Assembly (NCBI GenBank): GCA_010672925.1
Contig: JAAHFP010000016.1
Location: 1 to 64,000 of the forward strand
Source of the DNA: Symploca sp. SIO1C2
GTDB lineage: Bacteria > Cyanobacteriota > Cyanobacteriia > Cyanobacteriales > Coleofasciculaceae
Direction: 5' to 3'
Length of the DNA: 64,000 nucleotides
The notes beneath the pieces were generated by a model. The model did not search any database. It was not told the origin of the DNA and worked only from the letters and a program-made list of their open reading frames with translations. Both the position numbers and the translations under genes were made by a program. Of the stretch, positions 299 to 39,676 are shown piece after piece (the first letter of the stretch is position 1; each line of letters starts with the position of its first letter).

Positions 299-320
299 TG
301 ACAACAGCCGTTTTACTCAG

Positions 321-395
321 GAGCGGAATGATGCGAAAGTATCACGTTCCGTTTTGGAGAGCAGTGGAGGAGGCGACTCCTTCGCTGACTTTAAT
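321..395 (+). ncRNA. Group II intron domains V and VI (3' end of intron)
   Basis: Positions 321-354 read GAGCGGAATGATG, then CGAAAG, then a complementary TATCACGTTCCG arm, matching the short catalytic domain V hairpin. Positions 361-390 form a second hairpin with a GCGA loop whose arms pair fully if G-U pairs are allowed, leaving one bulged A near 388 as expected for the branch-point adenosine of domain VI. The intron should end at about 393-395. Fold read by eye; exact boundary uncertain. Confidence 0.7.
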
Positions 396-25249: not shown

Positions 25250-25632
25250 TCTCATGAAGATCTCATCATCTATCAAAAAGCATTTGATGCGGCTATGACT
25301 ATCTTTGAATTATCACGCGCAATTTCCTAGCGAGGAAAAATACTCTCTGACTGACCAAATTCGTCGTTCGTCTCGTTCTGTCTGTTCCAACTTTGCCGAG
25401 GCGTGGCGAAAAAGAAGGTATCAAGCATCATTTGTCTCCAAATTAAATGATTGTGAGGCTGAATCAGCTGAAACGCAAGTCTGGCTTAAATTTGCACCTC
25501 AAGTGTAACTATATATCTCCTGAAAAAGGAAGAGAATTATATAGTATATATAATCAAATCGTAAGTGGACTAGTCAAAATGATTAAGTCAGAGAGAAAAT
25601 TGGTTAATTGGTTAAGCCATGTTACAGAATAA
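25250..25632 (+). pseudogene. Four-helix-bundle protein (23S rRNA IVP-like), double frameshift
   Basis: Three successive frames together spell one protein of this family: HEDLIIYQKAFDAAMTIFEL (about 25252-25311), then FPSEEKYSLTDQIRRSSRSV with CSNFAEAWRKRRY (about 25322-25420) and LNDCEAESAETQVWL, then LKCNYISPEKGRELYSIYNQ. The first shift is near 25318 (before a TAG) and the second near 25495. The usual members are about 120 residues. The 3' end runs into the transposase start at 25619, so the IS probably inserted at or near its end. Confidence 0.75.
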
Positions 25633-26791
25633 GTATCTAAAAGACTGGTCAAGAATTGTATCTTATCACTTTCCTCATCTGTCATTACCGGAAGTAGCCG
25701 GTTTGGCAAGTTGGAGTTTTGGCATGGTTATGACTGGTTCAAGTAGTCTAACTAGAGTTTCTGAATTGATTGCTAAAGTGAATAGAGAAAAAACTAATAC
25801 AGTCCGAAAAAGACTCAAAGAATGGTATCAAGATAGTAAGGCAAAGAAGGGAAATAAAAGGAAAGAGTTAGATATCAATAAATGCTTTGTACCTTTACTC
25901 AAATGGATTATTAGCTTATGGAATAGTGAGGAAAAATGGCTACCATTGGCAATAGATACAACTAATATTGGGTCAAATTTTACGGTTCTATCTCTTCATG
26001 TTCTTTATCAGGGTTGTGGAATTCCTGTGGCCTGGAAGATTGTTAAAGGTACAGAAAAAGGCTCTTGGAAGCCTCATTGGCAAAATCTATTTCAATCTCT
26101 ATTGAATGCAATACCTGATGATTGGCAAGTCATTGTCTCAGCAGATAGAGGATTGTATGCTGATTGGTTATTTGCCGAAATTTGTGCTCTAAATTGGCAT
26201 CCTTTCTTGAGAATCAATTATCAAGGAACATATCGAGTCAGAGGTGAAAACGAATGGAAATCTTTAGAGACAGTTGTACCTCAGACAGCCATGAGTTGGT
26301 CAGGTCAGGTTACTTGTTTTAAAACTAACCCTCTTGATTGTACTTTATTAGCATGTTGGTCTGAAGGTTATCAAACTCCTTGGTTAATTATTACTGACTT
26401 AGAACCAGAACAAGGAAATGCTCGATGGTACAGTTTTCGGTATTGGATTGAATCGAGTTATAGAGATGTTAAAAGTGATGGTTGGCAGTGGAATAAAACC
26501 AGATTAAGAGAACCAGATAGAGCTGAGAGAATCTGGTTAGCTATGGCAGTAGCTACTCTCTGGGCTGTAACAGTTGGCAGTGATGAACAACGACATTTAT
26601 CAGACAAATTCAATAACCAGGTAATTACCGAAAAATGTAAAAATCCGCAATGTGAATTAAAGCAAGCCAATCGAACTATATCTTGTTTTTTACAAGGACT
26701 AATTAAGATTATTGCTGATTTAATTTGCGGTAAAAGCATTTCCTTAAATGGATTACTTCCGCAATCATCCCTTGTCGTAAATACTTCGTAA
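25619..26791 (+). mobile_element. IS4-family transposase gene
   Basis: 390 residues of the DDE type: LAIDTTN (first Asp, near 118), SADRGLYADWLF (second Asp, near 178) and the Y-(2)-R-(3)-E-like region YWIESSYRDVKSDGW with Glu near 280. This is the IS4 signature. The frame is complete. I could not fix the terminal inverted repeats: the left side joins the four-helix-bundle pseudogene and the right side touches MITE B at 26792, so the element may be truncated or its ends altered. Confidence 0.8.
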
Positions 26792-27456: not shown

Positions 27457-28842
27457 ATGAAAAAACTGATCAATTTCAGCCTAATGCTAGTTTTAGCCTT
27501 AGTTGTGACTTTTGTCGCAATAGGAGAATCTTCAGCCAGCGCGTCGGAGTTAAAAGTGGGGCTGTATCCATACGTTCCAAGGCTAGATCAATTCAAAAAT
27601 GAAATAACAAAGGCATGGAACGACAAGCATAATGATGTTACATTAAACTTTATCGACTGGGACGGTGGTTACGATAGTTATCATACCGAACCAACAGCAG
27701 ATGTGTATGTGTTCGACGCCATGTTTTTTGACTTATATAAAAGTAACAACTGGCTTGAACCAATGTACTTTTCTGAAGTCGAAAACAAACAAGATTTTTA
27801 CGAGTACGCAAAGAATGGGGTAATTGGACAATACGTAAAAGATGGTGTAACTCAAGGGGAAAAGTATTTCGCAATCCCCCAGCTAGGCTGTTCAAATGTC
27901 CTGTTTTATCGAAAAAATGATCAAGACTTAGCCAATGCAACAAACCTACAAGAAATGAATCAGGCGTTGCAGCAATGCCAATACACTAGCGACATACCTC
28001 CAGATCAAAGGGGACTGATGCTGGATATGGAGGGAGGTACAACAAATGCAGTTCTATACTTAGATACAGTATACAAAAGGAAGGGAATATATCCGTTCGA
28101 GTTGCCAATGGATACGGATGCTCTCGACAATCAAGGTATAGACAATATGCAAGAGTTGCTAGCGATGGCAAGCTACGATAATGCAACAGAAAAAAAGGAG
28201 GAAGAACCGGACCGTGCTGAGATGTTTAGTAAAGGGTATGGAAAGGCTTTCATGGGATATACGGAAGCAATGTCCCGAATGCAGAAAGATAGTTTGGAAG
28301 ATATCGGCATGAAGGTGATGCCATTATCACAGAATGATTCGACAACTAGTGATTTATTCTATGTAGATGTAGTTGGTGTCAATCCGAAAACGACAGATCG
28401 AGCAAATGCAGTAAAGCTAGCAAATCTGATAGCATCCAGCGAAGTCATATATAAAAGTCTGAACAAGGATGAAGCCGAAGGAAATCCACAGTATCTAATG
28501 CCAGTAAGGCCAAGCGTCATGTGGAAGCTAGCGCAGGAGTATCCTAAATATGATGAGATGTCTTACATGCTTCGTCAGTCCAAACCATTAATGTTCAAGC
28601 TAAGCGAAGAATCAGGTAATTGGCTGGATCAGATGAAGACACCGATCAAGCTAGCCGCAAGACAAGATTATCCTTGTGGATGCGATGTCAAAGCAGTGGA
28701 AACGATAAATAATCAGGGAGCGGCGGAGACAATATGCACAGAAACATGTACAAATCACGGAGGATGGAACGGTCAGTGGACAAATGAATACCCAGCAGCC
28801 CTGGAAGGTTCAGTATGCGGTTGCCAGCAATGTGGACTTTAG
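27457..28842 (+). CDS. Secreted thiaminase I with a C-terminal MVL-like lectin domain
   Basis: 461 residues. A Sec signal peptide (MKKLINFSLMLVLALVVTF...) is followed by LKVGLYPYVPRLDQF, IDWDGGYDSY, VYVFDAMF, IPQLGCSNVLFYRK, GGTTNAVLYLDTV and GYTEAMSRMQ. These match the bacterial thiaminase I (thiamine pyridinylase, EC 2.5.1.2) of Paenibacillus/Clostridium type. The catalytic Cys is Cys145 and the general base Glu is Glu270, spaced as in that enzyme. It swaps the thiazole of thiamine for another nucleophile outside the cell. After residue 405 is a Cys-rich tail, CGCDVKAVETINN then CTNHGGWNGQW then SVCGCQQCGL, resembling the mannan-binding (MVL) lectin motif. ATA codons look frequent, and the gene is boxed by mobile DNA, so transfer is likely. 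Confidence 0.85.
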   Translation: MKKLINFSLMLVLALVVTFVAIGESSASASELKVGLYPYVPRLDQFKNEITKAWNDKHNDVTLNFIDWDGGYDSYHTEPTADVYVFDAMFFDLYKSNNWLEPMYFSEVENKQDFYEYAKNGVIGQYVKDGVTQGEKYFAIPQLGCSNVLFYRKNDQDLANATNLQEMNQALQQCQYTSDIPPDQRGLMLDMEGGTTNAVLYLDTVYKRKGIYPFELPMDTDALDNQGIDNMQELLAMASYDNATEKKEEEPDRAEMFSKGYGKAFMGYTEAMSRMQKDSLEDIGMKVMPLSQNDSTTSDLFYVDVVGVNPKTTDRANAVKLANLIASSEVIYKSLNKDEAEGNPQYLMPVRPSVMWKLAQEYPKYDEMSYMLRQSKPLMFKLSEESGNWLDQMKTPIKLAARQDYPCGCDVKAVETINNQGAAETICTETCTNHGGWNGQWTNEYPAALEGSVCGCQQCGL

Positions 28843-29538: not shown

Positions 29539-29979
29539 CTAAAATCTCCTCCTAACCATGGGCACATGGGCAGCGGCTTCAATCCACAAGCGAGCATTGC
29601 ATGGTCCTGGACTATGGGGAGTATAGACCAGGCGGCAGGGGCCTTTGATGTCTAATTGATGGCATTGATGGTTATGTTTGCCTTGTTTTACCACAATCGG
29701 CGGCTCGTTTTGATTATTCTTGGCATTGCTGGCAATAGTTTTCCGGTTGATGACGACGCAGGTTTCCACTTGTCTAGGGCGCTTGTACCAAGTGCCTTTC
29801 GGTCCTCGGCGTCCGGCGATGACTACTGGCATTCCTTTATATAGAGGAATCATCCAGACCCGACCTTGCTTGGTAGCACCTTTGATTCGCCCTTGAGAGA
29901 GAAGGCGGCGGACTCTAGCTTCAGAAATGCCAAGCATTAAGGATGCTTCTGTGCTGCCGACATGGGTTTTTTTGTTCAT
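29539..29979 (-). CDS. HTH (excisionase/MerR-like) DNA-binding protein
   Basis: 146 residues. The first 45 residues, with STEASLMLGISEARVRRLLS and GRVWMIP, match the winged-helix excisionase type that recognises DNA. The remainder has VETCVVINRKT and a Cys/His-rich C-terminus (HNHQCHQLD, PCNARLW) that I do not recognise. It is the last gene in the minus-strand direction after the YcaO gene (179 bp gap), so it may belong to the RiPP operon as a regulator, or be a remnant of a mobile element. Confidence 0.65.
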   Translation of the reverse strand: MNKKTHVGSTEASLMLGISEARVRRLLSQGRIKGATKQGRVWMIPLYKGMPVVIAGRRGPKGTWYKRPRQVETCVVINRKTIASNAKNNQNEPPIVVKQGKHNHQCHQLDIKGPCRLVYTPHSPGPCNARLWIEAAAHVPMVRRRF

Positions 29980-30158
29980 TTTTCTGCCTTTTTATATTGC
30001 GTGCTAGTTTTAGTATAGGGTCGGTGAAGCAGAAAATCAAGGGGAGGTGATTAATTAGGGTTTGGGAGAATAAGTCGATTGATTCGGGTACAGAGGTAAT
30101 TATCCATTATTAATTAATGAAAGATCAATAATAAAAAATCCTTGAATCCCTGTTGCCC

Positions 30159-32438
30159 TTATAAAAATAAAGGTATGGGATTTAGTGCCGCTTCAGTTAA
30201 AGGCGTTTGCAATAGCTTCAATTTAACAGGGACTTCATAGAGTCTTCCTAATCCCAATCTGCGCCAGAAATGCCGAAGCCCTGGTATGACAACTTTGACC
30301 ACATTAAGCTCGATATCAGGTCGAGTTTGCTCCAGAACTAATAACTCGAGTCCAGCACCTTCGATTTGCTTCTGGCACCATTGTATATCTTCTAAAATAT
30401 CCTCATACCAGAGTTTAGGATAATCCTTTGCTTGTTTCTGAGGGTGATGGGGATGGGGGAGAAGATAGGGTTGATTGGCTATTGTTGCTGTTGTCCACCA
30501 TGTGAATACTGCGCGATCGCTATTGGTTTGGATGGGGGGATAAACTGTACAATCACCGTCATAAACAGCAACCGCCGGTAGACTTTGGTTGACTTCTGTG
30601 AGCGATCGCAAAATTGCTATCTGGGGGTCAAGATGAGCACCAGCACCTAATAAGATATCCTCGGCAGGAGCATTACGACGACGGGATAGGGCAACAAAGA
30701 CAGGAATTCCTAAATCTTGACTAACATCTAATACCCATAAATCCCGACCCAGGTGAGCAAAATACTGTTGGAGATGGTGAATATAAGGATTATCAAAACT
30801 ATCGAGATCAACTCCTGGCATTCTCAGGCGGTTATACCACCAAATAGCAACCGCATCCCGTTCAACTAATTCCATCATGCCTTGGAAAATAGCCTCTTCG
30901 ATCGCATTTCCAGCAGAGGTTCCATTGGTATCTGCCCAACAATAAGCGGGTTTGGTAACAGGATAACCATGATAGCAGTATGCTGTAGGTAGCCATTTAC
31001 TGCGTTTTTCCGTTAGAGACCATACAGGAGTCCAATCAATTACTTGCTCCGGGTCGAAGGGTTCGGGAATATATTGGAAGTAGTGAACGCAGTCGCGATT
31101 CAGTTGTTCGCGGTCTTGATACTGATGCTCACTAAATAATAAGCAGCGATAGGGGAGAATTGCTAGTTCTCCCAATTCCTGATAGGAGTTACTGCGAGTT
31201 GCTTCATCCCCTTGATAAACACCGCAATAGCGTTCGATCGCTTCACAAAAAGCACTAGCTTTGGCTTGTAGATCAGTAGTGCCTTTCCCTGCACTGCGTC
31301 CCCGTAGATTATCTTGTAATAAAGAAAGGTCATCAAATAGACATCGGAATTCGTGCCGAGAAATGTAGGTATGAATCAGCGCATTATCGCTGATGTCGAA
31401 TTTAGCAAAACTGCGAATAACTCCAGAGATAGGGCTGACGTGGGGGGCTAATCGTTCTAATAATTGTTCTGGACTAGTAATGCGATGACCATTATCGCTG
31501 AAACAGGTTTTGCGGCGCGATTGTAGTGTTAGAGGAGGATGTCCTTCAGTATTTCGAGGCAGGGCATCTCCGCATATCCGGCATTGGGGACGTTTAGTAA
31601 CTGGGTGACTTTCAAAGGTTAGTGATCTCGTGTCAAAGGTTAAAATCTGGTTACAAACAGCAGGATTTTCTCCCCAATGCAGCCATTTAGCGATCGCATC
31701 AACGGTTAAACCGGCAGCGAGATATTTACTGGAGGGTAAGCTACTATCAATGTTTCCCTGGATTTCCTTAAGCTGATAGTGACGTTTGAGATATTCTCCC
31801 ACGGGACGATTGCCCCGCAACCGTTGTGCTAAACATTCCCAGCAGGCGGTCTTGTTTGGTTCAAATAGGGGACCAATCCATAAGATTGCCCCTACGGGTT
31901 TGACTAATAACCAAGGGGTGTTGCTGGCTAATGCCTGTTGATTAATGATTGCTAATTCATCGGCTAGGTAATCATTGACAATAACCACCCGCAAGAGTGG
32001 ATCTGAACCCAGAGCGATCGCATTCTCCTGTAGTACATTAGCAATAATTTGGGTAATTTCCTGATTTAATCCAATGGTCTCAATGCTGACACAATGAGCG
32101 CTTGGTGATTTAGGTGCAGGGAGAATCTCGCAAGCATCCCAAAAAGCTTGTTGCGTTGGGTTTTGGTGGAAATCTCCTTCTGTGATAATCCCTAAAAAAT
32201 CAAGTTCTTCCAGGGCATCTGCGATCGCTTCAATTGTTACTTTACCATCTAATTGTTCGTATAAGCTTTGAAGATCCCGATTACCATCAATGTTCGTCAG
32301 CAAGGCAATTTGCACCGGATCGGTAATTACTAACTCCTGCTCCTCTGACAGCAAAAATACCGCATTTGTCCCCTCGTCTCCTAAATCAGAGGGAGTCAGA
32401 ATCTGGTAATGGGACTTAATTGTTGGTTGCCGATACAT
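30159..32438 (-). CDS. YcaO-type azoline cyclodehydratase (PatD/TruD-like fusion)
   Basis: 759 residues, the usual length of fused E1-like/YcaO cyclodehydratases of cyanobactin-type pathways. Residues 1-90 resemble the peptide-clamp/RRE winged-helix region that grips precursor leaders. Residues 100-300 form the E1-like domain with two zinc Cys pairs, CWEC (199/202) and CRIC (286/289). Residues 320-750 are YcaO, with the ATP-binding signature SAGKG near 382, Glu399 and Glu402 in CEAIERYCG and MMELVERDAVAIWW. It should use ATP to cyclise Ser, Thr or Cys into azolines. The C-terminus ends NPIPLFL, only partly like the PxPxP tail. Clustered with six precursor genes upstream in the same direction. 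Confidence 0.88.
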   Translation of the reverse strand: MYRQPTIKSHYQILTPSDLGDEGTNAVFLLSEEQELVITDPVQIALLTNIDGNRDLQSLYEQLDGKVTIEAIADALEELDFLGIITEGDFHQNPTQQAFWDACEILPAPKSPSAHCVSIETIGLNQEITQIIANVLQENAIALGSDPLLRVVIVNDYLADELAIINQQALASNTPWLLVKPVGAILWIGPLFEPNKTACWECLAQRLRGNRPVGEYLKRHYQLKEIQGNIDSSLPSSKYLAAGLTVDAIAKWLHWGENPAVCNQILTFDTRSLTFESHPVTKRPQCRICGDALPRNTEGHPPLTLQSRRKTCFSDNGHRITSPEQLLERLAPHVSPISGVIRSFAKFDISDNALIHTYISRHEFRCLFDDLSLLQDNLRGRSAGKGTTDLQAKASAFCEAIERYCGVYQGDEATRSNSYQELGELAILPYRCLLFSEHQYQDREQLNRDCVHYFQYIPEPFDPEQVIDWTPVWSLTEKRSKWLPTAYCYHGYPVTKPAYCWADTNGTSAGNAIEEAIFQGMMELVERDAVAIWWYNRLRMPGVDLDSFDNPYIHHLQQYFAHLGRDLWVLDVSQDLGIPVFVALSRRRNAPAEDILLGAGAHLDPQIAILRSLTEVNQSLPAVAVYDGDCTVYPPIQTNSDRAVFTWWTTATIANQPYLLPHPHHPQKQAKDYPKLWYEDILEDIQWCQKQIEGAGLELLVLEQTRPDIELNVVKVVIPGLRHFWRRLGLGRLYEVPVKLKLLQTPLTEAALNPIPLFL

Positions 32439-32565
32439 TTAGAATTTAGAATTTAGAATTTAGAATTTAGAATTAGGATTTGGGAAAGTCTAATTTTGAA
32501 AACTCTTATAATTCCTTTTTACCTTGCAAGCCATCTGCCATCTGCCATCTGCCATCTGCCTTTTG
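32439..32565. repeat. Short tandem repeats in operon gap
   Basis: 32439-32475 consists of TTTAGAATT units and 32529-32561 of GCCATCT units. No hairpin with T run, so the operon may read through. Confidence 0.6.
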
Positions 32566-33708
32566 CTATAGTTCTTCATTAACTCCATAAAACTGACAGG
32601 GATTATCCCAGAAAATTTTTTCCATGGTTTGGGCAGTAATGGTACTTTCTAAATCTGCCATATCGTGCATAACCTGGGGGTCAAAATCGATGTGAGGATA
32701 GTCTGAACCAATCAATAAGCGATCGCTGCCGAGTAAGTCAATTATCTGGGGTAAATAATGGGCTTCGGAAGGTTCGACGGCAATGTAAACTTGTCGGCGA
32801 ATATATTCGGAAGGCTTCATTTTAATGCGATCGCCAATTTCCCATTGGAGGTCTTCATATTCTCGGTCTAGTCGCCACATCCAATAGGGAAGCCAGCCGC
32901 ATCCGGATTCGAGAAAGGCAAATCTTAACCTCGGATAACGTTCTAATACACCCCCTTCAATTAAAGCGAGTAAGGCAAGTTGATGTTCCATGGGGATGGA
33001 ACTAGCATGAATACCAAAGCGGGTGTTAAATCGATTTTGTCCTGTGCTGGGAACTCGTGCATGAGAGCCTTCGTGAATCGCAATGGCTATATTGAGGCGG
33101 TCGCATTCTGCCCAAAATTCCTCATATAGGGGGTCACTTAAAAGGCGACCTTTAATCGGGTTAGGTCTTAACATTACAGCTTTCCAGCCAAATTGGTGAA
33201 TGCGCTGCAATTCTGAGACCATTTCCTCTGGATTGTGCTGATTAACTACACCTACTCCCCGCAGAGTATCAGGAGCAAGCTTACAGAAATCTTGCAACCA
33301 ATTGTTATAAGCCCGCACATAAGCACCGGCTAGATTGCTGTCCATGCAGTCCATGTAGAGGATCCACAGTCCAAAAGTCGGATATAAGAAAGCCATATCG
33401 CTACCAATTTGTGCGATCGCTTCAACATAGGCTTCTGGGGAAAATTCCGCAAGGTCTGGCACTCCACCATCCTTCTCTAATGCTTCTTCTGCGTGCTGCC
33501 AATATTGTGAAGAAAGTCCCGCTACAATTGGTTCCCCGGCAATAGTTAAATAGCGCCAAGGATCAGTTAATCCAGTCGGTTGTCCTGCTGGTGCAATGCC
33601 AATGCTTGGTGCTTGGTCTCGATAAGCTGGTTCGAGATATTCCTGCCACATGGCGAGGGGTTCATTTACATGGCAGTCGCTATCAATGATTTTATATTTG
33701 CCGATCAT
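32566..33708 (-). CDS. Amidohydrolase-2 (ACMSD-like) family protein in RiPP operon
   Basis: 380 residues, TIM-barrel metal hydrolase family. The start IIDSDCHVNEP is the usual first-strand motif with the metal-binding His, and LLIGSDYPHIDFD is the conserved last-strand motif with the metal-binding Asp. IAIHEGSHARVP contributes the middle His. The family includes hydrolases and non-oxidative decarboxylases such as ACMSD. It lies between the Rieske and YcaO genes in the same orientation, so it is a candidate tailoring or leader-processing enzyme. Its substrate is inferred, not shown. Confidence 0.8.
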   Translation of the reverse strand: MIGKYKIIDSDCHVNEPLAMWQEYLEPAYRDQAPSIGIAPAGQPTGLTDPWRYLTIAGEPIVAGLSSQYWQHAEEALEKDGGVPDLAEFSPEAYVEAIAQIGSDMAFLYPTFGLWILYMDCMDSNLAGAYVRAYNNWLQDFCKLAPDTLRGVGVVNQHNPEEMVSELQRIHQFGWKAVMLRPNPIKGRLLSDPLYEEFWAECDRLNIAIAIHEGSHARVPSTGQNRFNTRFGIHASSIPMEHQLALLALIEGGVLERYPRLRFAFLESGCGWLPYWMWRLDREYEDLQWEIGDRIKMKPSEYIRRQVYIAVEPSEAHYLPQIIDLLGSDRLLIGSDYPHIDFDPQVMHDMADLESTITAQTMEKIFWDNPCQFYGVNEEL

Positions 33709-33794
33709 TTATTACTTGTTATTTGTTATTTGTTATTTGTACCAACGACCAACGACCAACGACCAACGACTAATGACCAACAACCAATAACCAA
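33709..33794. repeat. Heptamer repeats between Rieske and amidohydrolase genes
   Basis: TTATTTG and CCAACGA/CCAATAA units in tandem, the same text found before deoC at 37075-37125. Confidence 0.6.
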
Positions 33795-35114
33795 TCATTC
33801 TGCTGGGTGGATATATTTGGATAATTCTCGATGTAAATGTTGAACCAAATTTTCTTCTTCTCCTAAGATAAAGCCCTCGAATGAGCGGGAGTTTAGTCCT
33901 TGTTGGACTCTGGCAAATACTGGCAAGTCCTGTGACAATTGGAGTTTAATCACTGGTGCTGGTATCGGTCCTTCAAAAAGCTGACTTAACTGGGGGTCAT
34001 CTTGGTATTTAAAGGTTTTAAAACTTGTTTGGGGAATCTCTTCTGTTGCAGGATCCAAGTGACACATCCTGGTGATATCGATATACATGCGACCAGGATC
34101 TGTGGGATGGGGACGATTCCGATACATTAAGCTACTCTCCGCCATTAAACCGATGACGATGTTGGGAAAAATTGAGAAAGCATAGGTTTCGGTAAGCTGA
34201 CTATCAGTTAAATTCTTATAGGGTTCAATAACTTCATTTTGCCGTGCTCGTTTGGCTTTCTGTACGAAGGTGCGGGCATTTTGGAGTGAGCCAGTGTAAG
34301 ATTGGGGATCAATATTGTTGAGGGCTAAATATTCTTGCATCCCATTGCTCAGCTTGCCGCTGTTCAATAAGGTAAATCCATTATCGGTAATCAGATAACC
34401 ATGTCGCCCCAGTGTGTTTCTGAGTACGTTATCAGTATCCATCCATTCTCGCAATTGGGGATGCAATGGGTTGACGTGATAAGTCTCGATAAAATTTTCG
34501 ACGGATACTTTCCAATTACACTCAACTTCGATGGTGCTGTAATCAATGGTAATTTGGCGCTCAGTTTCGTAGAGGTTAGCCAGTTCCAGAATTGGTGCGA
34601 GATAATCGGTTAATGGTTCAATGCTTGAGTCCATTGAATACCAAACCCAGCCGCCCCAAGTATCTACTTTGACTTCTTTTAAGCGAAAATCATTTTCTAG
34701 ATCTCTACCAGCTAGCTGAGGAAAACATTCGAGTTTGGGAATATTTTTTAAGTTACCACTGCTATCCCATTGCCAGTGATGGTAAGGACAGACTAGGGAT
34801 GTTTTTTTGCCTCGACATTGCTCATTTCCTAATATTCTTGCACCTCGATGGCGACAAACATTATAAAATCCTCGAATCCGGTTATCCCGTCCCCGCATAA
34901 AAATAAAAGATTCACCGGCAAACTCTTCAACTACATAATCATTAGCTTGTTGGAGTAATTCAAGACGGGGACCGATTAGCCAGACTTTTGACCACAATCT
35001 TTCTCTCTCTATTGCTACTGATTCACGAGTGAGATAATAATATTTAGAAAGGGGTTGAAAATTTCTATCAGTGCCAGGGGATAATTGACTAGTCTTTGCT
35101 GCTAATGATGTCAT
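33795..35114 (-). CDS. Rieske non-heme iron oxygenase in RiPP operon
   Basis: 439 residues. The Rieske [2Fe-2S] site is C-x-H...C-x2-H at Cys87/His89 (NVCRHRGARI) and Cys109/His112 (LVCPYHHWQW). The mononuclear iron site lies near 205-218 in VENFIETYHVNPLH, and a long catalytic domain follows. It matches ring-hydroxylating-oxygenase alpha subunits; the ferredoxin/reductase partners are not nearby. First enzyme gene after the precursors, and its leader resembles the precursor leaders. It may oxidise the core peptide or an azoline; the reaction is inference. The ATG at 35112-35114 is preceded by AATTAAAAGAG. Confidence 0.85.
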   Translation of the reverse strand: MTSLAAKTSQLSPGTDRNFQPLSKYYYLTRESVAIERERLWSKVWLIGPRLELLQQANDYVVEEFAGESFIFMRGRDNRIRGFYNVCRHRGARILGNEQCRGKKTSLVCPYHHWQWDSSGNLKNIPKLECFPQLAGRDLENDFRLKEVKVDTWGGWVWYSMDSSIEPLTDYLAPILELANLYETERQITIDYSTIEVECNWKVSVENFIETYHVNPLHPQLREWMDTDNVLRNTLGRHGYLITDNGFTLLNSGKLSNGMQEYLALNNIDPQSYTGSLQNARTFVQKAKRARQNEVIEPYKNLTDSQLTETYAFSIFPNIVIGLMAESSLMYRNRPHPTDPGRMYIDITRMCHLDPATEEIPQTSFKTFKYQDDPQLSQLFEGPIPAPVIKLQLSQDLPVFARVQQGLNSRSFEGFILGEEENLVQHLHRELSKYIHPAE

Positions 35115-35190
35115 TTTGCTCTTTTAATTAGCATTCAGCTATCAGCTTTCAGTTTTCTGGCTTCCAACCGATAGCTGAGCATATTGATTT

Positions 35191-35220
35191 GCCACTTGGG
35201 GATGCTCCCATCGCAGTAGC
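35191..35220 (-). promoter_or_regulatory. Conserved inter-precursor hairpin, before the Rieske gene
   Basis: On the minus strand GCTACTGCGATGGG, loop, CCCCAAGTGGC: a stem that is the same 30-nt unit found after other precursor genes (35468-35497, 35744-35773). Pairing is kept by G-U where bases differ. It could stabilise or partly terminate precursor mRNA. Confidence 0.55.
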
Positions 35221-35249
35221 TATACTCAGCTTTAATCTTTGCTTACTTC

Positions 35250-35384
35250 TTAACTTGCCATTACCGCAAAGGGACGCAATTTGCGAGACTTCTTTGTGGA
35301 TTGATGTTGTTCAGTGGATGCAGCCTTATTCACGGATTTCTCTAGGTCAGCTGCATTTTGAGTTTGAATTTTCTCAGATTCCAT
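35250..35384 (-). CDS. RiPP precursor peptide 6 (44 residues)
   Basis: Read from DNA. Begins MESEKIQTQNAADLEKSV and ends with KKSRKLRPFAVMAS. Ribosome-binding site AGAGGA precedes the ATG by about ten bases. Same length class and C-terminal block as the other five. Leader residues carry many Glu/Gln/Asn and Ser, suitable for recognition by the YcaO protein's leader clamp. Final residue Ser is a possible cyclodehydration site. Last of the six before the Rieske gene. Confidence 0.85.
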   Translation of the reverse strand: MESEKIQTQNAADLEKSVNKAASTEQHQSTKKSRKLRPFAVMAS

Positions 35385-35467
35385 TGATAGTATATTCCTC
35401 TTAATTAAGATTCAGACATCAACTATCAGCTGTCTAGCTTTCAACTGATAGCTGATAATATTGATTT

Positions 35468-35497
35468 GCCACTTGGGGATACTCTCCTCACAGTAGC
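35468..35497 (-). promoter_or_regulatory. Conserved inter-precursor hairpin (after precursor 5)
   Basis: Minus strand GCTACTGTGAGGA...TCCCCAAGTGGC. Six outer pairs include one G-U. Second instance of the 30-nt unit. Confidence 0.55.
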
Positions 35498-35525
35498 GAT
35501 ACTAGGCTTAGTATTTTCTTGATTC

Positions 35526-35660
35526 TTAAGTTCCCATCACCGCAAAGGGACGCAACTTCCGAGATTTATTGGCGGGTTGATGCTATTCAGTGGAAGCCGC
35601 ATTATCCACAGATTTCTCTAGGTTAGTTGCATTTTTAGTTTGAGTTTTCTCAGATGCCAT
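35526..35660 (-). pseudogene. RiPP precursor peptide 5, interrupted by an in-frame TAG
   Basis: Begins MASEKTQTKNATNLEKSV and, after 25 codons, has GAA-TAG-CAT where the others have GAA-CAA/CAG-CAT. A single C-to-T change makes Gln26 amber. Past the stop the frame continues HQPANKSRKLRPFAVMGT to TAA, so the core block is intact. Either a recent pseudogene or, less likely, read through. RBS AGAGGA is present. Confidence 0.85.
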
Positions 35661-35743
35661 TGGTAGTATGTTCCTCTTAATTATAATTCAGCCATCAACC
35701 ATCAGCTGTCTGGATTTCAGTTGATAGTCGATAATGTTGATTT

Positions 35744-35773
35744 GCTACTTGGGGATGTTTTCCTCAAAGTAGC
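35744..35773 (-). promoter_or_regulatory. Conserved inter-precursor hairpin (after precursor 4)
   Basis: Minus strand GCTACTTTGAGGA...CCCCAAGTAGC. The outer seven bases GCTACTT/AAGTAGC pair perfectly. Third instance of the 30-nt unit; weaker forms lie after precursors 1-3 (about 36020-36044, 36290-36312, 36558-36577). Confidence 0.55.
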
Positions 35774-35805
35774 TATACTAACTCAGCTACAATTTTGCTT
35801 GATTC

Positions 35806-35943
35806 TTAAGATGACATCACAGCAAAAGGACGCAATTTACGAGATTTCTTTGCGGGTTGAGGTTGTTCATTCGATGCAGAATTAGCCACAGATTGATCTA
35901 ATGGGCTATCCGCATCTTTAGTTTGAGTTTTTTGAAATTCCAT
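35806..35943 (-). CDS. RiPP precursor peptide 4 (45 residues)
   Basis: Read from DNA. MEFQKTQTKDADSPLDQSV at the N-terminus, then NSASNEQPQPAKKSRKLRPF and AVMSS at the end (split to keep the motif short). RBS AGAGGAG. Final residue Ser. Same C-terminal block SRKLRPFAVM as its neighbours. Confidence 0.85.
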   Translation of the reverse strand: MEFQKTQTKDADSPLDQSVANSASNEQPQPAKKSRKLRPFAVMSS

Positions 35944-36074
35944 TGGTGATAGACTCCTCTTAATTAGCGTTCAGCTGTCAGCCTTATAAATGAGTGCTGA
36001 TAGCCGATAATGTTGATTTACCGGGAGTGATCCCCCCAAAGTAGCTATACTCAGCTGCGATATTGGCTTAATTT

Positions 36075-36212
36075 TTAAGAGCCCATCACAGCGAAAGGAC
36101 GCAACTTACGAGATTTTTTTACTGGTTGATGCTGTTCATTGGATACAGAATTATCCACAGATTGATCGAACTGTTGAGCTGCATCTTTGATTTGAGTTTT
36201 TTGAGATTCCAT
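36075..36212 (-). CDS. RiPP precursor peptide 3 (45 residues)
   Basis: Read from DNA. MESQKTQIKDAAQQFDQSV at the N-terminus and KKSRKLRPFAVMGS at the C-terminus. RBS CAGGAG. Final residue Ser, preceded by Gly instead of Ala, so the -2 position also varies. Confidence 0.85.
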   Translation of the reverse strand: MESQKTQIKDAAQQFDQSVDNSVSNEQHQPVKKSRKLRPFAVMGS

Positions 36213-36338
36213 TAGTAATACACTCCTGGGATTGTTTGAAATTTATCAATATGCACCGTGTACCTGAGCTCGCGCCTATTGTGCGCTCTATCTATTCTTC
36301 AAAGTAGATATACTCAGTTTAATCTTTGCTTGATGCTC

Positions 36339-36476
36339 TTAACAAGCCATCACAGCAAAAGGACGGAACTTACGGGATTTTTTCACTGATTGAGGTTGTT
36401 CATTAGATGTAGCCTTGTCCACAGATTGATTTAACTGTTGAGCTACATCTTTGATTTGAGTTTTATCAGATTCCAT
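36339..36476 (-). CDS. RiPP precursor peptide 2 (45 residues)
   Basis: Read from DNA. MESDKTQIKDVAQQLNQSV at the N-terminus and KKSRKFRPFAVMAC at the C-terminus. The only member with a C-terminal Cys and with Phe for Leu in SRK(L/F)R, so it would give a thiazoline if the last residue is cyclised. RBS CAGGAG. Confidence 0.85.
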   Translation of the reverse strand: MESDKTQIKDVAQQLNQSVDKATSNEQPQSVKKSRKFRPFAVMAC

Positions 36477-36601
36477 TAGCAATACACTCCTGGGATTTTT
36501 GAACTTTATCAATGTAAATCAAGTACCTGATATCACACCGATTGTGGGCTCCACCTATTGTTCAAAGTAGATATACTCAGTTCCGACTTTGCTTGATTCT
36601 C

Positions 36602-36739
36602 TTAAGATGCCATCACAGCAAAGGGACGCAACTTACGAGATTTCTTTACTGGTTGATGTTGTTCATTGGATGCAGAATTATCCACAGATTGATTTAACTG
36701 TTGAGCTGCATCTTTGATTTGAGTTTTTTCAAATTCCAT
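36602..36739 (-). CDS. RiPP precursor peptide 1 (45 residues, promoter-proximal)
   Basis: Read from DNA. MEFEKTQIKDAAQQLNQSV at the N-terminus and KKSRKLRPFAVMAS at the C-terminus. RBS AGAGGAG. First gene after the candidate operator at 36831-36882, so it should be the most strongly expressed copy. Confidence 0.85.
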   Translation of the reverse strand: MEFEKTQIKDAAQQLNQSVDNSASNEQHQPVKKSRKLRPFAVMAS

Positions 36740-37109
36740 TATTCATACACTCCTCTAGTTTTTTGAGGCTTATCAATGCGCACCAATCCCTCAAGGTGAT
36801 ACCGATTGTGTGCTTACGTTGACAATTTGTATTTACTCTGATATTCAGTCGATTTTAGACATTTACTCTAATAGGAGTAAATATTTAGCAATATTTCTTA
36901 ATATTCAGCAGATTAATTTAATATTGTGTTGAACATCAGGGCTCAACATCGTACTTAAGACAATCACGACAAAATTGGTAATCGCGCTAGGTGAGCTAAA
37001 ATGAGGTTGTTTTCGACTCTGTCACCTTGATGCCAGCTAAAGACATCTACCATAAGGGTTATCAAGAGCCACCAATGACCAACGACCAATGACCAATGAC
37101 TAATAACCA
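36740..37109. other. Divergent intergenic region, precursor operon and deoC
   Basis: 370 bp, very AT-rich at 36800-36960, holding the repeated half-sites given separately. Close to deoC are CCAATGA heptamer repeats (37072-37125), which also supply the deoC start. Confidence 0.6.
36831..36882. promoter_or_regulatory. Candidate operator upstream of the RiPP precursor genes
   Basis: ATTTACTC occurs at 36831-36838 and 36861-36868, 30 bp apart (about three helical turns), and its inverse GAGTAAAT at 36875-36882 forms a perfect 8-bp inverted repeat with a 6-bp spacer. TATTCAGTCGATTT and TATTCAGCAGATTAA add a second repeated motif on both sides. Consistent with binding of a dimeric regulator, perhaps the HTH protein at 29539-29979. 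Confidence 0.45.
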
Positions 37110-39195: not shown

Positions 39196-39676
39196 AACAC
39201 CTATACTAGGCGATGGAATGTGTTCAAAGTTAACACAATAAACAATGCCTTTAGATGTAGGCAACAGAGGGAGCAATCGGCCCCTCTTTTTTATTGCTTT
39301 GGGGCAGGAGGCAGGAGGCAGGAGGCAGGAGGCAGGAGGCAGGAGGCAGGAGGCAGGAGGCAGGAGGCAGAAGGCAGAAGGCAGGAGGCAGGAGGCAGGA
39401 GGCAGAAGGCAGGAGGCAGAAGGCAGAAGGCAGTCCTGATGAAAAAGATTTTTCACCACCATACATGAAAATCCCTCTATCCTTGTCCCCGTGTCCCCGC
39501 GTCTATTTTCTTAATTCGACTACTTCAGGTTATGACTATACTATTATTGAATGTAGCCTCGAACCGAAGAACTACAAAGTGCAGAAGAAGCGCTAACTCG
39601 TCTTCATCTGAAGCTCTTGCATAGACAAGGTTTTCGACTGCAATGTCCCTAATAACTTGTGGCGTGAAATCCCAGC
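39196..39676. repeat. Heptamer tandem array and intergenic DNA
   Basis: 39302-39433 is a run of GGCAGGA/GGCAGAA heptamers, about 18-19 units, of the cyanobacterial STRR kind; apparent frames here are artefacts. AACAGAGGGAGC and the following text show no gene. The end contains the sequence before the next start. Confidence 0.8.

What the first reader, a model, noticed from the sequence alone, without database searches (positions are those of the whole stretch)
29539..36882. Apparently undescribed RiPP locus: six tandem precursors plus YcaO, Rieske oxygenase and amidohydrolase
Seen: six 44-45-codon genes in a row with the same leader and a common SRK(L/F)RPFAVM tail, then three enzyme genes and an HTH gene, all on the minus strand. 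Known: PatD/TruD-like YcaO enzymes cyclise Ser/Thr/Cys of precursor peptides. Inference: a ribosomal peptide pathway using oxygenase and amidohydrolase tailoring. There is no PatA/PatG-type protease, no azoline dehydrogenase and no transporter in the window, so it is not a standard cyanobactin cluster.
Basis: partly seen in the sequence, partly recalled or inferred. Interest (0 to 1): 0.93.

Follow-up and report, generated by a model that had tools for sequence, protein, structure and literature searches.

The report
Tandem peptides capped at C-terminus
A cyanobacterium related to Symploca carries a row of six near-identical short peptide genes (five intact, one broken) beside enzymes predicted to turn the last amino acid of each peptide into a small ring and then likely clip off its acid end, chemistry so far demonstrated for a similar enzyme from a pathway that builds peptides without the ribosome.

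Summary
On the minus strand lie five intact 44-45-codon precursor genes plus a sixth broken by an in-frame TAG, then a Rieske oxygenase, a PF04909 'amidohydrolase' and a LynD/TruD-type fused YcaO cyclodehydratase. A Symploca genome has the same locus (eight precursors, two Rieske genes). It is not a cyanobactin: no LAELSEE leader, no follower, no PatA/PatG match over the family cut-off. The key re-reading concerns the 'amidohydrolase'. It carries every metal ligand reported for LynB7, a diiron enzyme shown to turn a thiazoline-4-carboxylate into a bare thiazole, and PtmU3 (diiron oxygenase) is its best structural match. That fits the precursors: 30 of 31 distinct ones end in Ser, Cys or Thr, the penultimate residue varies, and no azoline dehydrogenase is needed. 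The pairing is general: in 386 cyanobacterial genomes, 19 of 20 such enzymes lie within about 11 kb of a fused cyclodehydratase. In 18 of 27 loci with both genes the likely substrate is a larger protein ending in Ser/Thr/Cys; in one ~350-residue family 120 of 120 listed homologues do. Predicted: YcaO cyclises the C-terminal residue and the diiron enzyme decarboxylates it to an azole. Chemistry, protease and Rieske step are untested.

The parts
36602..36739 (-). precursor 1, 45 aa, ends RPFAVM-A-S
   Evidence: E 1.2e-31 to precursor profile
36339..36476 (-). precursor 2, 45 aa, ends RPFAVM-A-C (ATG at 36476 taken as start, not the upstream TTG)
36075..36212 (-). precursor 3, 45 aa, ends RPFAVM-G-S
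35806..35943 (-). precursor 4, 45 aa, ends RPFAVM-S-S
35526..35660 (-). precursor 5, broken copy: in-frame TAG; remnant tail reads RPFAVM-G-T
   Evidence: left out of alignments A1 and A3 and of the codon counts
35250..35384 (-). precursor 6, 44 aa, ends RPFAVM-A-S
33795..35114 (-). Rieske non-heme iron oxygenase alpha subunit, 439 aa, nearest solved relative carnitine monooxygenase
   Evidence: PF00355 + PF00848; role in the pathway inferred
32566..33708 (-). PF04909 protein, 380 aa: LynB7/BarH-type dinuclear iron oxidative decarboxylase (predicted); ligands D11 H13 H212 E267 D336 H339 D341
30159..32438 (-). fused ThiF-like/YcaO cyclodehydratase, 759 aa, LynD/TruD/MusD type
29539..29979 (-). 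HTH_17 protein, 146 aa; membership in the locus not shown
   Evidence: PF12728; no relative in L011

Best explanation
This is a ribosomal peptide locus in which a LynD-type YcaO enzyme is predicted to cyclise the C-terminal Ser, Cys or Thr of each short precursor to an oxazoline or thiazoline, and the neighbouring PF04909 protein, which carries all the metal ligands of the diiron enzyme LynB7, would then oxidise and decarboxylate that terminal ring to a bare azole. Shown by sequence: the array, the conserved RPFAVM tail, the S/C/T rule at the last residue with a freely varying residue before it, the LynB7/PtmU3 ligand set, and the tight genomic pairing of this enzyme with fused cyclodehydratases in the cyanobacterial genomes sampled. 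Inferred: that YcaO acts on the last residue (it has a free carboxylate, which LynB7 requires); that the PF04909 protein makes the azole, so no FMN azoline dehydrogenase is needed; that the invariant KSRK-LRPFAVM stretch guides the enzymes; that an unlinked protease releases the product; and that the Rieske oxygenase adds a further oxidation on the constant RPFAVM part (least certain). The product would be a family of peptides that differ mainly in the residue that bears the terminal azole.
Confidence: 0.62

Rival explanations
1. The PF04909 protein only hydroxylates the azoline or another residue (a dinuclear oxygenase like PtmU3/AibH2/SfbO) without decarboxylation, giving a hydroxylated, acid-ended peptide.
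For: Same ligand set as PtmU3 and the same fold as the 8sm8/8sm6 oxygenases.
Against: LynB7, the family member tested on exactly an azoline-4-carboxylate, decarboxylates; substrates end in the residue that carries a free carboxylate after cyclisation.
Confidence: 0.15
2. It is a true amidohydrolase, like the thiazoline-specific PurAH of bottromycin, that cuts the peptide next to the azoline.
For: Same broad superfamily name; YcaO partner as in bottromycin (recalled; PurAH named).
Against: The ring-forming residue is the last one, so there is no follower to cut; LynB7 is only 14% identical to PurAH according to PMC10127204; the ligand set is that of dinuclear oxygenases.
Confidence: 0.08
3. The peptides are cyclised inside the leader or not at all, and the conserved RPFAVM tail is the active part, e.g. 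a signal peptide; the S/C/T end is incidental.
For: RPFAVM is the most conserved part (pN/pS 0.13) and the true substrates of the Rieske and PF04909 proteins are unknown.
Against: S/C/T exchange among themselves, with Ser encoded by TCT and AGT, while the neighbouring residue is free; the same rule holds in 120 of 120 listed p350 homologues against 59 of 326 ORFs of 200 aa or more in 39 loci, a count that still includes p350s.
Confidence: 0.1
4. A decayed or variant cyanobactin cluster.
For: LynD-like cyclodehydratase.
Against: No leader motif, no follower, no PatA/PatG match over cut-off in the genome; conserved as a unit in another Symploca with eight intact precursors.
Confidence: 0.03
5. 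The small frames are not translated.
For: One of six copies has a stop codon.
Against: Purifying selection on the tail across two genomes, reading frame kept in 13 of 14 copies, an AGGAG-like stretch ahead of the ATGs.
Confidence: 0.02

Closest known systems
LynB7 / BarH (lyngbyapeptin B and barbamide NRPS pathways)
   Same: PF04909 protein with the same seven metal-site residues as LynB7; predicted to act on a C-terminal azoline-4-carboxylate.
   Different: There the azoline is built by an NRPS cyclisation domain on Cys; here a YcaO enzyme and ribosomal precursors that end in Ser, Cys or Thr.
Cyanobactins (LynD, TruD, MusD)
   Same: Fused cyclodehydratase of the same type.
   Different: No LAELSEE-type leader, no follower, no PatA/PatG match over cut-off; ring predicted at the very last residue.
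Bottromycin
   Same: RiPP with a decarboxylated C-terminal thiazole and a YcaO enzyme (recalled).
   Different: Bottromycin uses a P450 for decarboxylation and an amidohydrolase to remove a follower (recalled; BtmJ and PurAH are named); here no follower, and no P450 match was listed for the window ORFs scanned.
Amidohydrolase-related dinuclear oxygenases (PtmU3, AibH1H2, SfbO)
   Same: Fold, and the ligand set as far as the alignments and the LynB7/PtmU3 comparison show.
   Different: PtmU3 and AibH1H2 act on small molecules and AibH1H2 has a small Rieske partner protein; here a full Rieske oxygenase lies next door.
Nostatin A (azole proteusin, Nostoc)
   Same: Cyanobacterial YcaO azole RiPP (PMC11583998).
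   Different: Has a separate azoline oxidase NstE and an unmodified C-terminal Ser; no PF04909 enzyme among the functions named in the passages seen.

Membership tests
Cyanobactin | fused ThiF-like/YcaO cyclodehydratase | tested here: met
   LynD E 1.8e-193, TIGR03604 and TIGR03882 over cut-off
Cyanobactin | LAELSEE-type leader motif (motif recalled) | tested here: not met
   0 of 5 intact window precursors; found in L073, L074, L080 by the same scan
Cyanobactin | PatA/PatG-type maturation protease | tested here: not met
   TIGR03895: six matches below cut-off, best 113 bits against 421, in the whole genome of 245 contigs, 97.9% complete; general subtilisins of control genomes ring too
LynB7/BarH oxidative decarboxylase | six ligands D, H, H, E, D, H in LynB7 order | tested here: met
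   121 of 121, positions
LynB7/BarH oxidative decarboxylase | Asp where PtmU3 has Glu313 | tested here: met
   D341 in 121 of 121; also Asp in 8sm8, so not exclusive
LynB7/BarH oxidative decarboxylase | direct sequence identity to LynB7 or BarH | not testable with these tools
   LynB7 and the original BarH sequence were not retrieved; homologues labelled BarH (P0113, P0014) are 54-57% identical
LynB7/BarH oxidative decarboxylase | Fe(II)- and O2-dependent decarboxylation of an azoline carboxylate | not testable with these tools
   needs enzyme assay
Rieske non-heme iron oxygenase | Rieske CxH...CxxH motif and catalytic domain | tested here: met
   PF00355 53 bits, PF00848 95.6 bits; CxH, CxxH and the YH..PxHP iron-site stretch align with carnitine monooxygenase
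RiPP | short precursors with conserved guiding part and variable core next to modifying enzymes | tested here: met
RiPP | modified product | not testable with these tools
   needs mass spectrometry
Bottromycin-type | follower peptide after the core (recalled) | tested here: not met
   the ring-forming residue is the last residue in 30 of 31 precursors

The most novel reading that the evidence does not exclude
YcaO plus a BarH-type diiron enzyme is a general cyanobacterial machine that caps the C-terminus of ribosomal products with a bare azole: two-residue cores in this window, NHLP-type precursors in likely Moorena genomes, and whole folded proteins elsewhere, above all a ~350-residue family without Pfam domain or recognisable PDB fold that often sits beside a large Ser/Thr kinase-AAA-GAF protein and in nearly every member ends in two or three S/T/C residues. 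Cyanobacteria would thus use azole end-caps as a modification of intact proteins, and the NRPS enzymes LynB7/BarH would be borrowings from this ribosomal system.
Probability: 0.42. Interest if true: 0.93.

Novelty: new variant of a known kind. Interest (0 to 1): 0.83.

Why it matters
If right, it joins a known ring-forming enzyme class (YcaO) to a recently found decarboxylating diiron enzyme in a ribosomal setting, gives a gene-encoded route to peptides with C-terminal azoles (a structural feature that lyngbyapeptin B and barbamide share), and explains a whole set of YcaO loci. It gives a simple rule (substrate ends in S/T/C, YcaO next to a PF04909 gene) for finding more, and raises a testable question about azole-capped proteins.
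Full report
What is there. The minus strand of the window carries, in order of transcription, an array of short frames (36739 down to 35250), a Rieske oxygenase (33795-35114), a PF04909 protein (32566-33708) and a 759-residue fused cyclodehydratase (30159-32438). The array has six units, but the unit at 35532-35660 has an in-frame TAG, so five precursors are intact. Their common end is KKSRK[LF]RPFAVM followed by AS, AC, GS, SS and AS. The own genome (8.67 Mb, 245 contigs) holds no other copy at E<=1.

The locus is conserved. Symploca sp. SIO2E6 (L011) has one Rieske gene, eight intact precursors (one starting with GTG), a second Rieske gene, the PF04909 gene and the YcaO gene (identities 81 and 85% for the Rieske genes, 89% for the PF04909 protein, 79% for YcaO). 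In L011 the second Rieske and the PF04909 frame overlap by four bases, as in an operon. In a draw of 388 genomes of the order (a capped first look) only two, both of this genus, have the array, and one of the two is the L011 genome itself. A search of 5.8 billion proteins found 32 hits at E<=1, with names from Symploca SIO2E6, SIO1A3 and SIO3E6 (Caldora) only.

How the precursors evolve. Thirteen intact copies of two genomes give pN/pS of 0.83 in residues 1-31, 0.13 in residues 32-43 and 1.9 in the last two (cross-genome pairs: 0.87, 0.10, 1.75). Among the 31 distinct full-length cluster representatives the last residue is S 19, C 7, T 4, P 1, while the one before it is G, A, V, M, S, T or F. 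In the window the last codon is TCT, TGT, TCT, TCT and AGT, and ACT in the broken copy. So the last residue is held, with one exception, to those three residues that YcaO enzymes cyclise, and the one before it is free.

The enzymes. The YcaO protein aligns over its length with LynD and TruD. The Rieske protein is nearest to carnitine monooxygenase among solved structures (E 6e-29) and has the CxH and CxxH cluster motif and the YHxxPxHP iron-site stretch. The PF04909 protein was the surprise. Its best solved relatives are PtmU3 and other amidohydrolase-related dinuclear oxygenases. Kudo et al. 2023 (PMC10127204; abstract, passages and section 7 read) showed that LynB7, a relative of PtmU3 in the lyngbyapeptin B pathway, turns 2-thiazoline-4-carboxylic acid into thiazole with loss of CO2, needing Fe(II) and O2, not accepting the carboxamide or the thiazole. 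The ligands they list occur here at D11, H13, H212, E267, D336, H339 and D341 and are identical in 121 of 121 aligned sequences (the window and the 120 listed of the 1075 homologues). A predicted structure (pLDDT 84.6, pTM 0.88) matches PtmU3 best by Foldseek and VIA-align, although mononuclear decarboxylases of the same fold score nearly as high, so the ligands, not the fold, carry the argument.

Why the parts fit. LynB7 needs a free 4-carboxylate on the ring; a YcaO ring made from the very last residue has one. LynB7 oxidises the azoline itself; hence no azoline dehydrogenase is required, and none was recognised in the window. This is inference from chemistry shown for LynB7 and from the sequence pattern; no product has been seen.

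The pairing is general. The cyclodehydratase was found at E<=1e-60 in 30 of 386 genomes drawn from the phylum and the PF04909 protein at E<=1e-90 in 19 of the same 386, 20 matches. All 19 are among the 30. By coordinates and neighbourhoods, 19 of 20 matches share a contig with a fused cyclodehydratase within about 11 kb, 16 of them within 2 kb (the other three at 5.6, 6.1 and 11.0 kb). One of the 19 (G190:C76) was recognised only, because one search scored two candidates in that genome. The exception, G253:C54, is a truncated copy with an in-frame stop and no cyclodehydratase in the 20 kb taken. The window's genome has two full-length copies, each beside one of its two cyclodehydratases, and an 81-residue partial match elsewhere.

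What the partners end in. In most of these loci there are no short precursors but larger proteins. The commonest, here called p350, has no Pfam match at E<=0.1 (4 members). Of the 120 listed of 165 homologues, 120 end in S, T or C, 119 have S/T/C at the second last place and 120 at the third last; of 326 ORFs of 200 aa or more in 39 loci, 59 end in S/T/C, p350s included. Unrelated shorter proteins in other loci end alike (..YIPTSTT..PYLPTTCS..WIPYSSC..YIPTTSS), and NHLP-like precursors in L055, L116 and L117 end ..GTC..GCC..ACC (weak Pfam support for L055 and L116, L117 not scanned). A terminal motif [YWF][ILMV]P, at most one residue, then two or more S/T/C occurs in 18 of 27 loci with both enzymes, 3 of 4 with the PF04909 gene only, and 0 of 20 with the cyclodehydratase only. 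The motif was taken from these loci, several of which are from near relatives, so this is a contrast between groups rather than an independent test; L065, counted as YcaO-only, is the same region as L126; and the YcaO-only loci L060 and L066 hold proteins ending ..NQLIPFTT and ..MIPACC that resemble the pattern but miss the motif. Of the nine loci with both enzymes that lack the motif, seven have another candidate that ends in S/T/C (window, L011, L055, L079, L116, L117, L124; a single such end is weak evidence, since about one ORF in six has it), L067 has a p350 ending ..SCL, and in L057 I saw none.

What remains open. The protease: no PatA/PatG-type match over cut-off in the genome, though six weaker subtilisin-like matches exist, and none recognised in the window. 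The Rieske step: in the loci examined the gene occurs only with the short-peptide arrays; carnitine-monooxygenase-like enzymes oxidise next to nitrogen (recalled), so a hydroxylation or C-N cleavage on the constant RPFAVM stretch is my guess, at perhaps one in three. The size of the product: if KSRK-LRPFAVM is only a guide, the core is two residues; if it is kept, the products are RPFAVM-X-azole peptides.

Novelty. Within the ten literature searches listed under Tried and rejected, no listed paper joined YcaO with a BarH/LynB7-type enzyme. The individual enzyme types are known, and a decarboxylated terminal thiazole is known in a RiPP (bottromycin, by another enzyme; recalled); the combination, the terminal-residue rule and the extension to large proteins appear new. 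I therefore call the window's locus a new variant of a known kind (azole RiPP), with a bolder reading, protein end-capping, left open.

Noticed in passing
L013 13568-14617, L014 13761-14807, L015 4850-5971, and L053, L054, L056, L058, L059, L062, L064, L067, L077, L118, L121: A ~350-residue protein family without Pfam domain or PDB fold match, beside YcaO + PF04909 (in L121 beside PF04909 only) and in 9 of these 14 loci a large Ser/Thr kinase-AAA-GAF protein (L015 probably too, cut at the edge), ending in S/T/C in 120 of 120 listed homologues; the copy in L067 ends ..SCL.
   Followed up: yes
L055 11940-12266, L116 13418-13834, L117 13506-13850, L079 11535-11876 and 11999-12325: NHLP-like precursors (L055, L116, L117) and two ~110-aa proteins without Pfam match (L079), all ending in Cys or Ser (..GTC, ..GCC, ..ACC, ..RVC, ..RQS), beside YcaO + PF04909 genes.
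   Followed up: partly
window 27457-28842 (+): Thiamine pyridinylase (thiaminase I, TIGR04541 349.8 bits over cut-off 175) with a C-terminal mannan-binding lectin domain (PF12151, 33.5 bits over cut-off 25), about 0.7 kb from the HTH gene; a thiaminase-lectin fusion.
   Followed up: partly
window 25619-26791 (+): DDE transposase gene (PF01609) near the locus.
   Followed up: no
window 319-395 (+): Group II intron catalytic domain (RF00029, 53.6 bits).
   Followed up: no
window 39251-39466: Run of short repeats that reads as RRQEAGG in one frame and CLLPPAS in the other.
   Followed up: no
L012 10001-12145: A 38% identical fused cyclodehydratase in a Chthonomonas MAG, i.e. outside cyanobacteria; its substrate was not sought.
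   Followed up: no
L065/L126 (G330): Cyclodehydratase gene with an extra YcaO fragment between it and the PF04909 gene, suggesting a partial duplication or decay.
   Followed up: no
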